Assembly (NCBI GenBank): GCA_937929805.1
Contig: CALFUT010000019.1
Span: forward strand, 1-45,845
Reading direction: 5' to 3'
From: an uncultured Pirellulaceae bacterium
GTDB taxonomy: Bacteria > Planctomycetota > Planctomycetia > Pirellulales > Pirellulaceae
DNA: 45,845 bases
A program made the position numbers and the translations under genes. Shown piece by piece: positions 10,566-19,079 of the stretch (position 1 is its first letter; each line of letters starts with the position of its first letter). A model generated the notes under the pieces. That model was given only the letters and a program-made list of their open reading frames with translations, ran no database searches and was not told where the DNA came from.

Positions 10566-10874
10566 CTTGTGTGCAGATCAGCTGGGTACAATCAAGCTTC
10601 TTTTAACAAAATCCACGCGTTGAGCAAAATTTTTAGTCGCGTCGACGAACGCTCTGACGTGTCCCACCGTACGAGGCCTTGATTTTTTGCGGCAGTGGTT
10701 TCACTAAGTGGTTCGCGTCGTGGGTAGTAGCGGCTTCAATCGCTTGAAAACGACAACCGAAAGCCTGAAGGCTGAAGGCTGAAGGCTTAACTACGAACCT
10801 TGCTCTCTAAAAAATCACAGCCTCTACGTGATGCAGAAGACGTTTTCAAGTTGCGAAAAATAGAAAGAAATCGA
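10566..10874. other. Region upstream of the sulfatase gene
   Basis: No gene is evident. The reading frame of the sulfatase is open back to a TTG at 10800, but the signal peptide argues for the ATG at 10875. A short tandem repeat lies at 10765-10785. The promoter must lie here, but no clear box pair is visible. Confidence 0.5.
10765..10785. repeat. Three tandem copies of the heptamer CTGAAGG
   Basis: CTGAAGG occurs three times in direct succession and is preceded by AAGC and followed by CTTAA, so the outer parts also form a small inverted repeat (AAGCCT/AGGCTT). It sits about 90 bases upstream of the sulfatase ATG and is presumably a small polymorphic intergenic repeat. Confidence 0.6.
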
Positions 10875-12740
10875 ATGCACTGGTCCCCGTGTCGTTATTT
10901 TGCTGGCCGAGTCCGCAATGCTTCGATTTTTGCATTTGGCTGGTTGCTGGTACTCGGCTGGACTCATACAGCAAAGGCTGGCAACGTACTGTTGATTATC
11001 GCGGATGATTTAGGGGCTGACTCCATTGGCCTTTTTTCCTCGGCTGCAAACACCGCCCCAACACCGACACTTGATAACCTAGCGGCCAACGGAGTTCGTT
11101 TTACACGCTGCTGGTCCAACCCAACATGTTCACCGTCCCGTGCGTCTTTGCTTACGGGGCGGCACGGGTTTCGAACTGGCGTGGGGACTCCGGGCGATGT
11201 GATCGACTTGTCAGAGAGCACGCTGGCTCACGCGTTCAATAACGCGGGTCATGCCACGGCCTGCATTGGAAAGTGGCACTTGAGCAACAATAGCAATGGT
11301 GGAGCAGATAATCCCAATCTTATGGGGTTTTCACACTTCAGTGGTCCACTCAGTGGAGGAATCCCGAACTACTCTGCTTGGACCAAAGTCGTCAATGGTG
11401 TGACCCAGCCTCAAATTAACACGTACGCAACCACTGAAAATGTGAACGATGCGCTTGACTGGATCGACGATCAAAATGGGGATTGGTTTTTGTGGTTGGC
11501 ATTCAACGCCCCCCACACGCCCTTCCATCTGCCCCCCGCTAATCTTCATAGCTACAACTTGAGCGGTGCCCCTGGAGACATTGCTGCCAATCCTACGCCG
11601 TACTACCAAGCTGCCGTTGAGGCGATGGATACGGAAATCGCTCGGCTGCTCAATACAATGGATCCGGCAGTGTTAGCCAACACGACCATTGTCTTCATAG
11701 GCGACAATGGGACTCCCGCTCAAGTTTCCCCGGGAACGGTACGAGGGGCGAAGTCGAGCTTGTACGAAGGAGGAGTCCATGTGCCGTGCATCATTTCAGG
11801 TTCCGCTGTATCGGGCAATTTGAATCGCACGAACGCCGCCAGCATCCACTTCGTTGACTTCTTTGAGTCGTTATTAGAATTGGGCGGCTTGGACCCTAGT
11901 TTGTACACGCCGGTGGGCGCCGCGACGGACTCGGTTTCGTTTGCGGACCACGTGTTCGACCCTGCTGCAGAAAGCGAGCACGATTGCCAGTTTACGATCA
12001 GATTCAATGGGACAAGGCCTGCTCAAGACGGCCACGCGATCGCAAACGATCGGTTTAAACTCATTCAATACTTGGACGGCGATGAAGAGTTTTTTCGAAT
12101 CGCCAATGAAACGTCAAACTTGTTAAACGCGGGACTCAATGGCAATCAAACCACCAACTACGTGGAACTGATCGCGAAGCTGGCGGTGCTGATGGATCCA
12201 CCCAAAGTTGACTCGGTCGTCCGGGACGAAGGATCCATCGCTCGGCCGGACTTGATTAATGCCATTGAGGTCGTGTTCAATCAACATGTAAACGTGGCGG
12301 TCGAAGATTTGCTGATGCAAAACGACACGACCCAACAAATTCTTGACTTGACAGGAGTCGGCTTTAGCTACGAAGCGACGACGTTTACTGCGACGTGGGA
12401 TCTAAGCATTTTGCCGACTCCGTTGGAGCCAGCTTTTTACACGGCTGAACTTATCGCAGCCAACGTTGCCAGTGTCGACGATGATACCGAACTGGACGGC
12501 GACGGTGATGGGGTGTCTGGCCCAAACCGCGAGGAACCGCTGCTGGTTGCGATCCCCGGGGACGTCAATCTGGATGGAACGGTTGACGTGTTGGGCGATG
12601 CTTTTGCTTTGGTTGCAAATTTGAATCTTTCTAGCGGCACCAGTTGGAGTCTTGGAGATTTAAACGCGGATGGAACGGTCAACGTCTTGGGCGACGCATT
12701 TATTCTGGTCGCCAACCTTGGACGTACGCTTAATCCATAA
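10875..12740 (+). CDS. Secreted sulfatase with C-terminal dockerin-type repeats
   Basis: From ATG 10875 the product is 621 residues. A signal peptide ending near THTAKA (about residue 35) precedes the sulfatase metal-site start NVLLIIADDLGADS and the formylglycine signature CSPSRASLLTG, with Cys85 as the modified residue. Additional family marks are GKWHLS, APHTPFHLP, IGDNG and VRGAKSSLYEGGVHVPCI. After the catalytic domain (to about residue 440) come a linker beta domain and two dockerin-like calcium-binding repeats, GDVNLDGTVDVLGDAF and GDLNADGTVNVLGDAF. Sulfatases of this class remove sulfate esters from polysaccharides or other sulfated substrates outside the cytoplasm, and dockerin tails are common in planctomycete exoproteins. 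Activation needs a formylglycine-generating enzyme, not encoded here. It ends 12 bases from a convergent gene. Confidence 0.94.
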   Translation: MHWSPCRYFAGRVRNASIFAFGWLLVLGWTHTAKAGNVLLIIADDLGADSIGLFSSAANTAPTPTLDNLAANGVRFTRCWSNPTCSPSRASLLTGRHGFRTGVGTPGDVIDLSESTLAHAFNNAGHATACIGKWHLSNNSNGGADNPNLMGFSHFSGPLSGGIPNYSAWTKVVNGVTQPQINTYATTENVNDALDWIDDQNGDWFLWLAFNAPHTPFHLPPANLHSYNLSGAPGDIAANPTPYYQAAVEAMDTEIARLLNTMDPAVLANTTIVFIGDNGTPAQVSPGTVRGAKSSLYEGGVHVPCIISGSAVSGNLNRTNAASIHFVDFFESLLELGGLDPSLYTPVGAATDSVSFADHVFDPAAESEHDCQFTIRFNGTRPAQDGHAIANDRFKLIQYLDGDEEFFRIANETSNLLNAGLNGNQTTNYVELIAKLAVLMDPPKVDSVVRDEGSIARPDLINAIEVVFNQHVNVAVEDLLMQNDTTQQILDLTGVGFSYEATTFTATWDLSILPTPLEPAFYTAELIAANVASVDDDTELDGDGDGVSGPNREEPLLVAIPGDVNLDGTVDVLGDAFALVANLNLSSGTSWSLGDLNADGTVNVLGDAFILVANLGRTLNP

Positions 12741-12752
12741 TTCGTGGCAGAG

Positions 12753-14132
12753 TTACTCCAACGCGATCAGTTGCTCTTGAGCGTTTTGCAACGCCTCCTG
12801 CGCCATCTCAAGAAATTCTGGGCTGTCGTGTTCCAGCAACGCTTTGAAATGAGCCTGCGGATCGTCGACCCAGTTTTGATAGGCGGCCGCGTATAGCCCC
12901 ATGAATTCGTAGTCGCAGTTTTGAAGCGACTGAACAAAGCCGCGATCAATCGCCGGCATGATGGTGGCGGGGATGGATTCTTTTGAAGCCAAGGCAACAA
13001 TCCCAGCGAAGGTCACGAACCTGACTTTGCTGTCGAGCATCTTCGCAGCCAGTCGCATGGTCCCTTCATCTAGCTTGGCCAGCTTTATCAGAGCGAACAT
13101 GGCTTTGGCTCGAACTTCGTTGTCCCGATACTCAACCAACAAACGCAATTCATCGACGATCGCTTCAGTGACGCCTGTCATCCGTTCGGTGGCTCCGATG
13201 GTTTGTAACAGAAGGGCTCGGTTGTTCGACCTGAGCAGATCAAGCAGCAGGTTCTCCTGTTGCTGCGTGAGCGAGCCTTCTATCTGCAACCGGTTCATCG
13301 CCACGACTTTTGTTGACATCGATTTGCCCTCGACCAGTGTCCACCAATCATCCTGAGGTTGATTCAAAACCTCAGTGGCAGCTTCTTTCGGTTGAAAGAA
13401 CCCGTCATTGGTTTTATTCAAAAACTTCAGTGACTTTTTCATCGGGCCTTTGATCTCGGCGGGCAAGTCGTTCGACCATACCGGATCTTTCTCGTTGCGA
13501 GACCAAGCAGCAATTGCTTCAGCGTAAGCAAAAGCTTGAGCATCCAGAAACGGTTTGGGGACTGCCAGCCATTGCGTCGTGTCCCAATAGCTGCCCTTGT
13601 TGTTCACCAGCGGAACGTTGGCGCGGAGCATTCCAAGTCCTGTGCCGATCACTGCAAGGTCAACCAGTTCGGGAAAATGAGCGTAGTTGAATTCGTTTTG
13701 GTGCAGCATGTCGGCCACCACAAAATGGACCAGCGTCGCCGCTGCGACTCCGGGCTCATGACGCACATCGGTCGTCAGCGTGATTTGTCGCTCGTTCGCA
13801 TCGTACTCGCCCGGCAGACCGCCGAGACCCTCGCAAGAGCCGCCGCCTCAGCCCCCGCCGCCACATTTTTCTAATTGTTGCGGAGCAACCTTGACGCTCA
13901 ACTGACTGATATCGTGCGATAGATGGCTACCGACGAACGCAACCAGTTGATTGACACCGTCTTGTGCTCGAACCAAATCAAGCATCGACGCCAGACTCTT
14001 CACGGGCAAATGGAGGCGTTCGAAACCAATGCACTCTGCCAGTTGCTGAAAGTGAAACTCAACTTTCGCCTTTTCACCGTCGGGAAGGTTTGCAGTTGTT
14101 TTGAAGAAGTTCACGCGGCTACCGTTTTGCAA
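12753..14132 (-). CDS. Candidate selenoprotein: HEAT-repeat protein with an in-frame UGA in a Gly/Cys-rich motif
   Basis: Two open segments (14132-13851 and 13847-12753) lie in the same frame, separated only by one TGA at 13850-13848. Read through, they give 459 residues with position 95 at the UGA. The UGA is bracketed by CGGGG before and GGGSCEG after, and coding character continues without a break (LPGEYDANERQITLTTDVRH). The N-terminal 90 residues are a soluble domain. The middle (PGVAAATLVHFVVADMLHQN) resembles a helix that in remembered relatives carries an HELAH motif, here changed to HF. The C-terminal part, from about residue 290, is HEAT-like helices. The start is unclear: TTG 14132 or GTG 14117, with a stop just upstream. 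The alternatives are a premature stop in a decaying gene or a sequencing error. Confidence 0.6.
13810..13850 (-). promoter_or_regulatory. In-frame UGA followed by a bacterial SECIS-like hairpin
   Basis: On the minus strand, 27 bases after the UGA, CUCGGC (13826-13821) and GCCGGG (13815-13810) pair as a 6-bp stem, including one U-G pair, around the loop GGUCU (13820-13816). Bacterial SECIS models ask for an apical loop about 16-37 bases after the UGA with a G in its first two positions; this hairpin meets both. The stretch is GC-rich, so a hairpin of this size could arise by chance, and it is supporting evidence only. Confidence 0.4.
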
Positions 14133-14461: not shown

Positions 14462-17391
<2,930 letters not shown>

Positions 17392-17443: not shown

Positions 17444-18055
17444 ATGCAGTCGGTTGAAGATAAAATCTTACGAAGAATACGAGGCAAGCCTAAAGGCTGG
17501 GTCTTTACGGCCAATGATTTTTGGGACATCGGATCAGCCGAAACTACTCGCAAAGCTCTCAAGAAAATTTGCGACCGTGGCCGGATAAACCGAATCGCGC
17601 GAGGGCTGTACTACAACCCTAGAATGCACCCCAAGCTTGGAGTCTTGCCTCCGACGCCAGAAGATATTGTCGCAGCAATCAAAACGAAGCAGCACACTAA
17701 GACGCAACCAACTGGAGCGTATGCTGCCAATATCTTGGGGTTGAGTACTCAAGTGCCAGGCAAAGTTATCTTCTTGACTGACGGGCCTGACAAACAGCTG
17801 AAGGTTGGCAACCGTACAATCCAACTCAAGAATCGTTCTCCGCGCTCCATGGCTGGTGCTGGTCACATTACCGGCCTCTTCATTCAGGCCCTCAAGCACA
17901 TTGGAGAAAAAAGGTTTACGGAACGACACCTCAAGATTCTACGAAATAGGCTTGAGCCAAAGCAGAAAAAGAGACTCGAAAAGGACATCAGGTTGGCTCC
18001 AGGATGGATTGCCGCTGTTGTGCGCAAACTTGGCAAGGAGCCAGCGTGTGATTGA
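17444..18055 (+). CDS. AbiEi-type antitoxin (DUF6088-like) of a type IV toxin-antitoxin pair
   Basis: A 203-residue basic protein. Residues 1-65 look like a winged helix-turn-helix: VEDKILRRIRGKPKGWVF, ETTRKALKKICDRGRINRIA, then RGLYYNPR, the G.I.RI.RGLYY.P wing typical of AbiEi antitoxins. The rest matches the DUF6088 layout, with AANILGLSTQVPGKVIFLTDG and a basic C-terminal domain. AbiEi proteins repress their operon and neutralise the nucleotidyltransferase toxin without direct binding. The toxin gene starts inside the last codons (8-base overlap). Lys/Arg-rich, lower-GC composition than its neighbours suggests horizontal acquisition. Confidence 0.88.
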   Translation: MQSVEDKILRRIRGKPKGWVFTANDFWDIGSAETTRKALKKICDRGRINRIARGLYYNPRMHPKLGVLPPTPEDIVAAIKTKQHTKTQPTGAYAANILGLSTQVPGKVIFLTDGPDKQLKVGNRTIQLKNRSPRSMAGAGHITGLFIQALKHIGEKRFTERHLKILRNRLEPKQKKRLEKDIRLAPGWIAAVVRKLGKEPACD

Positions 18056-19079
18056 TTTTGCAAATCTTCCCGCCGATGAGCAAGCGATCTATTTTCAGCA
18101 AACCGCAGAAAAAATGAACCTGCCGGGCCACCTTGTTGAAAAAGACTTTTGGGTTTGTTTCACACTGCAAACCCTATTCTCGCTCGAGGATTTCAAAGAT
18201 CATCTAACCTTCAAGGGGGGCACTTCTCTCTCGAAAGTTTACAAGGTAATTGACCGGTTTTCGGAAGACATTGATTTTGCTGTCCAGCGTGACTGGTTGG
18301 GGTTTGGTGGAGACAATGCTCCTGATGCCATCGGTATATCTGGAGAGCAACGGAACAAACGATTACAGCTGCTTAGTAAAGCGTGCCTGAATAAAATACG
18401 AGATGAGCTTGTCCCTTCGCTCGACACTGCACTAGCAGGGATCCTGAAACGAGACGGGTGGAGCCTCGAATTCAATGAAAACGAAAGGAACAATCAGCAA
18501 ATCTATTTTAAATACCCTCAGTCGAGGCTGACCCCTGAATCGAGTTACAACCCGCCTTTTATTCGCATTGAACTGACGGCCAGAACCGACAACCATCCGG
18601 CAGAAACTGCGACGATCTTTCCCTATGTTGCCGAGCAAATTGATTCTTCAATTGGAAAACCGGAAGTCCTTGTAAATGTTCTCAAGGCCGAACGAACATT
18701 TTGGGAAAAGGCCACGATCCTGCATCAGTTTCATTTTCAAACCAACCCGGAGAAGATTGCTCCGGGTTTTTCACGTCACTATTACGACGTGTCGCATCTA
18801 GATTCCAAGGGCTATTCTAATTCTGCGATCGAACAAATCGAACTTCTTCCTGAAGTCGCTGACCACAAAAACATCTACTATCGTCAGGCTTGGGCTAGGT
18901 ATGACCTTGCCCGAAATCACAGAACTTTCGAACTCATTCCCCACGACAACATCGTTTCGACGATAAAAGCAGACTATGAGGAAATGCAGGAAATGATGTT
19001 CGGAGACACGCCGCTTGCTTTCGATGCAATTCTTCAACAGCTGCATGAACTGAAACAGAAAATCAACTCTCTCGAGTAA
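18048..19079 (+). CDS. AbiEii-type nucleotidyltransferase toxin
   Basis: The 343-residue product starts at GTG 18048, overlapping the antitoxin gene by eight bases. The frame is open much farther upstream, but that part is the antitoxin read in another frame. Residues 30-36 read VEKDFWV and residues 57-63 GGTSLSK, followed by the acidic pair Asp74/Asp76 in FSEDIDFAV: the GGTS...D.D nucleotidyltransferase signature of the AbiEii/AbiGii family. Later motifs KAERTFWEKATILH and RHYYDVSHL are also usual for the family. Characterised AbiEii enzymes bind nucleotides, or modify tRNA 3' ends in the related MenT toxins, causing growth arrest that protects against phage. The pair stands alone, without other visible defence genes. 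Confidence 0.92.
   Translation: MIDFANLPADEQAIYFQQTAEKMNLPGHLVEKDFWVCFTLQTLFSLEDFKDHLTFKGGTSLSKVYKVIDRFSEDIDFAVQRDWLGFGGDNAPDAIGISGEQRNKRLQLLSKACLNKIRDELVPSLDTALAGILKRDGWSLEFNENERNNQQIYFKYPQSRLTPESSYNPPFIRIELTARTDNHPAETATIFPYVAEQIDSSIGKPEVLVNVLKAERTFWEKATILHQFHFQTNPEKIAPGFSRHYYDVSHLDSKGYSNSAIEQIELLPEVADHKNIYYRQAWARYDLARNHRTFELIPHDNIVSTIKADYEEMQEMMFGDTPLAFDAILQQLHELKQKINSLE

What the first reader, a model, noticed from the sequence alone, without database searches (positions are those of the whole stretch)
12753..14132. Candidate new selenoprotein: one in-frame UGA inside a CGGGG-UGA-GGGSC motif with a SECIS-like hairpin
Two open segments on the minus strand are in exactly the same frame and are separated by a single TGA (13850-13848). 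Coding character continues on both sides, there is no other stop, and the downstream piece has no sensible start of its own, beginning mid-domain with a GTG. The UGA sits among glycines with Cys on both sides, the kind of place where homologues would have Cys. A 6-bp hairpin with loop GGUCU lies 27 bases after the UGA, within the spacing and loop-G rule of bacterial SECIS models. I know of no described selenoprotein with HEAT-like repeats and this motif, but I cannot search for one.
Basis: partly seen in the sequence, partly recalled or inferred. Interest (0 to 1): 0.85.

Follow-up and report, generated by a model that had tools for sequence, protein, structure and literature searches.

The report
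New planctomycete selenoprotein with HEAT repeats
A bacterial gene that looks broken by a stop codon appears instead to read that codon as the rare amino acid selenocysteine, placed in a glycine-rich loop of a protein family for which I found no earlier report of selenium, which gives a new place to look for selenium chemistry in environmental bacteria.

Summary
The minus-strand frame at window 14114-12753 has one internal stop, TGA 13850-13848. A search of 241 family genomes gave 51 strong homologues: 38 have TGA at exactly this codon, 13 have Cys, none anything else. The own genome has selA, selB, selD and a UCA-anticodon tRNA-Sec. SelB and/or tRNA-Sec was found in 35 of 37 TGA genomes and 0 of 13 Cys genomes. 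A 6-bp hairpin with loop (G/A)GU(C/U)U, 27 nt after the UGA, shows compensatory changes in TGA forms and none in Cys forms. No NCBIfam model matches it and no entry of a 2026 catalogue of 119 prokaryotic selenoprotein families fits it by name.

The Sec loop is an insertion in a zincin-like domain that lacks HExxH in 51 of 51 members, followed by HEAT-like repeats. Rooted with relatives, Sec is the older state and Cys arose once.

I infer a redox role (Sec89/Cys94), unproven. No selenium or full-length product has been measured.

The parts
12753..14114 (-). Selenoprotein gene: GTG start 14114, in-frame UGA (Sec89), TAA stop 12755-12753; 453 residues
13848..13850 (-). UGA codon read as selenocysteine (residue 89)
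   Evidence: 38 of 51 homologous loci have TGA, 13 of 51 TGC/TGT at this codon
13810..13826 (-). bSECIS hairpin: arms 13826-13821 and 13815-13810, apical loop GGUCU 13820-13816, 27 nt after the UGA
   Evidence: 97.9% of cells paired and 3 of 6 pairs with compensatory change in TGA forms; 70% and none in Cys forms; loop fits the published bSECIS rule
13821..13865 (-). Glycine-rich insertion, residues 84-98 (approximate limits), with Cys84, Sec89 and Cys94
   Evidence: the Sec column is a gap in 13 of 14 zincin/HEAT relatives; gap also in hhalign
13713..13727 (-). H-F-V-V-A (residues 130-134), aligned with HExxH of relatives; zinc motif lost
   Evidence: 0 of 51 family members have HExxH; 6 of 14 aligned relatives do
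12783..13265 (-). C-terminal HEAT-like alpha-helical repeats (residues 284-444)
   Evidence: profile hits to solved repeat chains, best E 2.2e-10 (synthetic fusion 9sah), 3.3e-8 to alphaRep; helices of mostly good confidence in the model; Pfam HEAT only below cut-off

Best explanation
The gene encodes a new family of bacterial selenoprotein, found here only in Pirellulaceae. SHOWN by comparison: the frame continues through the UGA, the aligned residue in Sec-lacking relatives is Cys, the genome has the whole Sec machinery, and a bSECIS hairpin just after the UGA is under selection as RNA. ESTABLISHED mechanism applied here, not measured: SelB with Sec-tRNA(UCA) recognises the hairpin and delivers Sec to the UGA. 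INFERRED function (about 0.45 for redox): a flexible glycine-rich loop carrying Sec89 and Cys94 was inserted beside the former active-site region of a metallopeptidase-like domain that has lost its zinc motif; Sec89 probably cycles between selenol and a selenenylsulfide with Cys94 (or with an upstream Cys), reducing a peroxide or disulfide, while the HEAT repeats hold a partner protein.
For: TGA 38, Cys 13, other 0 of 51 loci. SelB over cut-off in 32 of 37 and tRNA-Sec of at least 60 bits in 33 of 37 TGA genomes (at least one in 35 of 37); neither in 13 of 13 Cys genomes (Fisher p 3e-10). Own selA 574, selB 357, selD 267 bits, tRNA-Sec anticodon UCA. Hairpin covariation: 0 of 500 shuffles reach the covariation score or the percentage paired, and sliding the partners drops pairing from 97.9% to 49.5% or less. 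Codon +10 is GGT or AGT in 38 of 38 TGA forms, although GGT is 29.6% of Gly and AGT 16.7% of Ser codons downstream in these genes; 1 of 13 Cys forms has GGT. dN/dS 0.04-0.38 upstream and 0.05-0.11 downstream in 8 close pairs. 15 of 38 TGA-form genes also end in TGA, so UGA still terminates.
Against: No protein or selenium data. Two TGA genomes (G004, 80% complete; G023, 71%) show neither SelB nor tRNA-Sec. The Cys forms are one clade, so the machinery link is one evolutionary event. The shuffles do not keep relatedness, and 5 of 500 reach the count of pairs changed on both sides. Single-sequence hairpin energy is unremarkable, and Cys forms fold at least as well by energy (mean -11.6 against -9.6). 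For the redox role: 2 of 38 TGA forms lack the +5 Cys and 12 of 38 lack an upstream Cys; no consistent gene neighbour; the N-terminal model is not reliable.
Confidence: 0.94

Rival explanations
1. The TGA is an ordinary stop or a decaying frame (or an error), and the downstream part is a separate gene or dead sequence.
For: 25 such split frames exist in the window by the same mechanical test; there is no protein data.
Against: The codon is TGA in 38 loci of 37 genomes, with no TAA or TAG there in 51; uninterrupted Cys homologues; purifying selection on both sides; conserved SECIS.
Confidence: 0.02
2. The UGA is read as an ordinary amino acid (suppressor tRNA, code change, or programmed read-through) rather than as Sec.
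For: The codon lies among glycines, and UGA=Gly and UGA=Trp codes exist in some bacteria (recalled).
Against: Relatives have Cys, not Gly or Trp; tRNA-Sec and SelB are present; the hairpin is conserved; TGA still ends 15 of 38 of these same genes.
Confidence: 0.02
3. It is a selenoprotein, but Sec89 and the nearby Cys bind or sense a metal or metalloid (for example Hg, Cu, As) rather than doing redox catalysis.
For: A flexible Gly-rich loop with Sec and nearby Cys at varying spacing suits soft-metal binding (inference); the domain is related to HExxH proteins.
Against: 12 of 38 TGA forms lack the upstream Cys and 2 lack both it and the +5 Cys; no consistent neighbour genes of any kind.
Confidence: 0.25
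4. It is still an active zinc metallopeptidase, with Sec or Cys as a new zinc ligand or switch.
For: Domain homology to HExxH proteins (hhalign probability 100, E 7e-45).
Against: HExxH absent in 51 of 51; the columns of the Glu and second His are variable.
Confidence: 0.05

Closest known systems
Known prokaryotic selenoprotein families (119 families/subfamilies, PMC13188914 Table 1)
   Same: In-frame UGA, Cys homologues, bSECIS with G in the first two loop positions and 16-37 nt spacing (section 5 and parts 1-2 of 3 of section 7 read).
   Different: By name no listed family has HEAT repeats ('heat' occurs 0 times) or a zincin-like domain; NCBIfam, whose accessions the table uses for many families, gives no match to the window protein. 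'Hypothetical protein DG' (NF049953, GUxG) is reported from Desulfosediminicola (passages of PMC12013277) and was not among the matches; I did not check that the library holds that model.
Selenoproteins of planctomycetes P1 and P2 from Porphyra (PMC4807772)
   Same: Planctomycetes with the full Sec machinery; [quoted passage not shown]
   Different: The passages name fdhA and fmdB; the gene list is in S9 Table, which could not be opened here, so overlap is not excluded.
Zincin-like (HExxH) plus HEAT proteins of Planctomycetota (L107, L109, L097)
   Same: Same two-part architecture; profile alignment over 433 columns.
   Different: They lack the Gly-rich Sec loop and keep HExxH; the selenoprotein family has the loop and no HExxH.
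E. coli fdhF SECIS (recalled)
   Same: Hairpin with a GGUCU loop, as I recall it.
   Different: Compared from memory only, not by a call.

Membership tests
Bacterial selenoprotein | In-frame UGA conserved among homologues | tested here: met
   38 of 51 loci
Bacterial selenoprotein | Cys at the aligned position in other homologues | tested here: met
   13 of 51, no other residue
Bacterial selenoprotein | Coding constraint on both sides of the UGA | tested here: met
   dN/dS at most 0.38 upstream and 0.111 downstream in 8 of 8 close pairs
[quoted passage not shown]
   loop 5 nt with GU at positions 2-3 in 38 of 38, 6 bp, 27 nt; 36 of 38 30-nt segments reach -7.5; rule
Bacterial selenoprotein | selA, selB, selC, selD in the genome | tested here: met
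Bacterial selenoprotein | Selenium present in the full-length product | not testable with these tools
   needs mass spectrometry or 75Se labelling
Any described selenoprotein family | Match to a curated family model | tested here: not met
   no NCBIfam family for the window protein at E up to 1; Pfam weak only, under cut-off
Zincin metallopeptidase | HExxH zinc motif | tested here: not met
   0 of 51
Zincin metallopeptidase | Homology of the domain to HExxH proteins | tested here: met
   hhalign probability 100, E 7e-45 against 14 rows, 6 of them with HExxH
HEAT-repeat protein | Helical repeats recognisable by profile | tested here: met
   hits to solved repeat chains to E 2.2e-10, model helices; single proteins stay below Pfam cut-offs
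Thioredoxin-type selenoproteins (UxxC/CxxU) | CxxU or UxxC motif | tested here: not met
   in the window protein the motif is C-x4-U-x4-C; Cys at +5 in 49 of 51

The most novel reading that the evidence does not exclude
A dead metallopeptidase-like domain was turned into a selenium-dependent redox (or redox-sensing) protein by one insertion that brought a Gly-rich Sec loop together with half of its own SECIS hairpin. The family was born with Sec, not by Cys-to-Sec exchange; when one lineage lost the Sec machinery the residue became Cys, the hairpin dissolved, and the amino acids it had dictated (G-G/S-L-P) drifted.
Probability: 0.4. Interest if true: 0.85.

Novelty: new member of a known kind. 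Interest (0 to 1): 0.72.

Why it matters
It adds a selenoprotein family on a domain for which I found none listed (the catalogue I read says that most characterised selenoproteins have a thioredoxin-like fold). Here Sec looks older than Cys, while a 2006 survey found 33 Cys-to-Sec against 15 Sec-to-Cys events (passages of PMC1794560). The Cys clade, with the machinery gone and the hairpin eroded, is a natural experiment on why Sec is kept. In 37 genomes this protein may well be annotated as two fragments (inference; I saw no annotation of them).

Tried and rejected
Window-only evidence: split frames are common here (25 stops with 80 open codons on each side) and the hairpin energy is not special, so I did not rest on either. 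Gene context: in flanks of roughly 1.5-6 kb no neighbour recurs in a consistent place beyond close species (I looked at the 25 largest clusters); the peroxidase upstream is separated by a terminator-like hairpin at 14358-14327 (which finds 4 such sites against 3.1 in shuffles). Structure: AlphaFold2 with two rows gave mean pLDDT 54, the N-terminal domain mostly below 50, so I made no fold search. The genome-contig scan used a Cys pattern only and so could not find TGA forms; it returned one locus (Rhodopirellula maiorica SM1), the same gene as L095.

Papers, what I saw: PMC13188914 abstract, section 5, parts 1-2 of 3 of section 7, and passages; PMC4807772, PMC12013277, PMC1242214, PMC1794560 passages only. 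That the family is not in print rests on those readings and on search listings 16, 71, 72, 75, 80, 90 (listed: 25 of 78, 15 of 266, 2 of 2, 4 of 5, 10 of 79, 8 of 18 papers) in an open-licence library; most subscription papers, preprints and supplementary tables were not seen.

Rows left out of counts: L047 (same gene as L095); all matches of 110 bits or less, among them two short end fragments (G136:C345, G204:C33). tRNA-Sec was counted at 60 bits or more, not at Rfam's 47: at 47 three Cys genomes (G038, G055, G141) would count, but ARAGORN reads those hits, and the best hits of three further Cys genomes, as tRNA-Ser (6 of 13 Cys genomes checked). G222's SelB lies in two pieces under the cut-off and was counted as absent. 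G010 and G014, same genus, have SelB and tRNA-Sec matches but no match to the gene.

Full report
Observation. The minus strand from 14132 to 12753 is a single frame with one internal stop, TGA 13850-13848. The hairpin CTCGGC-GGTCT-GCCGGG is at 13826-13810, with 27 nt between UGA and loop. Aligned relatives place the start at GTG 14114, so the UGA is codon 89 of 453. Taken alone, neither is remarkable: 25 stops in the window, 11 of them TGA, have 80 or more open codons on both sides, and the hairpin's energy has z -0.22 against shuffles.

Homologues. A search with the downstream part in 99 genomes (own and relatives) gave 44 with a match; in 25 of 27 same-genus relatives it was strong, in frames of 358-373 aa, as expected if all open at the UGA. 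A profile search of 241 family genomes gave 93 with a match, of which 50 genomes hold 51 strong matches (544 bits or more; the next is 110). The codon in these 51: TGA 38 (37 genomes, one with two copies), TGC 11, TGT 2. Two same-genus genomes (G010, G014) have no match. Strong matches were not found outside the family in 392 genomes of the phylum or 396 of the order; both are samples. The family is Pirellulaceae, by the named member Rhodopirellula (Novipirellula) maiorica SM1, whose gene is that of G193.

Machinery. The own genome has selB 357 bits, selA 574, selD 267 and a tRNA-Sec of 70 bits with anticodon UCA. Over the 37 TGA genomes, SelB is over the cut-off in 32 and tRNA-Sec (60 bits or more) in 33; only G004 (80% complete) and G023 (71%) show neither. 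Over the 13 Cys genomes both are absent in 13. At Rfam's own cut-off of 47 bits three Cys genomes would count as having tRNA-Sec; in six Cys genomes, these three included, I checked the best hit and all six are tRNA-Ser. Within genus g94, tRNA-Sec is in 8 of 8 TGA genomes and SelB over cut-off in 7 of 8, while the Cys genome G217 has neither. The Cys forms are one clade, so this is one event, not thirteen.

RNA element. In 38 TGA forms (32 distinct) 97.9% of stem cells pair; three of six pairs show compensatory changes (C-G to U-A, C-G to G-C, G-C to A-U). No shuffle of 500 reaches the covariation score, though 5 of 500 reach the number of pairs changed on both sides, and these shuffles do not keep relatedness. 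In 13 Cys forms (10 distinct) 70% of cells pair and no compensatory change is seen. The loop is GGUCU, AGUUU or AGUCU in all 38, which fits the published bSECIS rule; RNAalifold adds a G-U/A-U closing pair, as that rule allows. Codon +10 is GGT or AGT in 38 of 38 TGA forms and GGT in 1 of 13 Cys forms. By energy alone the Cys forms fold at least as well, so the case rests on covariation and loop identity. Two TGA forms break the outermost pair and two the third pair.

Selection. In eight close pairs dN/dS is 0.04-0.38 before and 0.05-0.11 after the UGA. Fifteen of 38 TGA-form genes end in TGA, so the codon still means stop elsewhere.

What the protein is. Profile comparison with 14 planctomycete proteins aligns 433 columns with probability 100 and E 7e-45. 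Six of those 14 keep HExxH: three full-length with HEAT-type C-termini (L107, L109, L097) and three short (L098, L101, L102). Of these six I scanned four against Pfam (L097, L098, L101, L102); their peptidase matches (SprT-like, M78, M10, M48) are weak and below cut-off, so 'zincin-like' is my reading of the motif. In the selenoprotein family HExxH is absent in 51 of 51, and the Sec column is a gap in 13 of 14 relatives: the Gly-rich loop is an insertion just before the strand that leads to the former HExxH helix. The C-terminus matches solved repeat proteins (a synthetic fusion at E 2.2e-10, alphaRep at 3.3e-8; that alphaRep are HEAT-type is recalled) and models as helical repeats. Cys at +5 is present in 49 of 51 and an upstream Cys within 8 residues in 39 of 51.

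Evolution. In a tree of 51 the Cys rows form one clade. With 11 zincin/HEAT rows as outgroup the Cys clade sits inside the Sec rows (supports 100/98, 97/92, 100/100), so Sec is the older state. Cautions: the base of the family is unresolved, the stem is long (2.23), and the program warns of long branches meeting. The insertion and the 5' arm of the hairpin overlap, which suggests, but does not show, that Sec and SECIS came together.

Function. Not shown. Most likely a Sec89-Cys94 redox pair on a flexible loop next to a vestigial cleft, with HEAT repeats for a partner; metal or metalloid binding is the main rival. Gene neighbours give no hint.

Known or new. No NCBIfam match for the window protein, and no entry in a 2026 catalogue of 119 prokaryotic families fits by name or motif. 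Six paper searches (listings only) showed nothing on this family. One planctomycete study lists selenoprotein candidates in a supplementary table that could not be read here, so an unnamed earlier listing remains possible.

Noticed in passing
L107, L109, L097, L104-L106, L110, L112-L114, L046: A wider planctomycete group of HExxH-type domain plus HEAT proteins in which HExxH is missing in 8 of 11 full-length rows; in the 5 relatives scanned, no Pfam model covers the N-terminal domain over its cut-off.
   Followed up: partly
L076:316-2523: selD of the own genome has an N-terminal extension that looks like an NADH-dehydrogenase-type flavoprotein (735 aa; read by eye, not scanned).
   Followed up: no
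L087 and L088 (G221): One genome carries two TGA-form copies of the gene.
   Followed up: no
window 14462-16873 (-): Upstream neighbour is a peroxidase with two PF00141 stretches, like a catalase-peroxidase (recalled); not a conserved neighbour.
   Followed up: partly
window 17444-19079 (+): DUF6088 gene followed by an AbiEii-type nucleotidyltransferase, like a type IV toxin-antitoxin pair.
   Followed up: no
window 10800-12740 (+): Sulfatase (PF00884) with a C-terminal aspartate-rich repeat resembling dockerin-type repeats (seen; label recalled).
   Followed up: no
G259:C1:1443932-1444261, G082:C11:16505-16861, G522:C3:94897-95250: Weak distant matches with TGA inside the matched stretch; may be ends of genes read through or further cases.
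   Followed up: no
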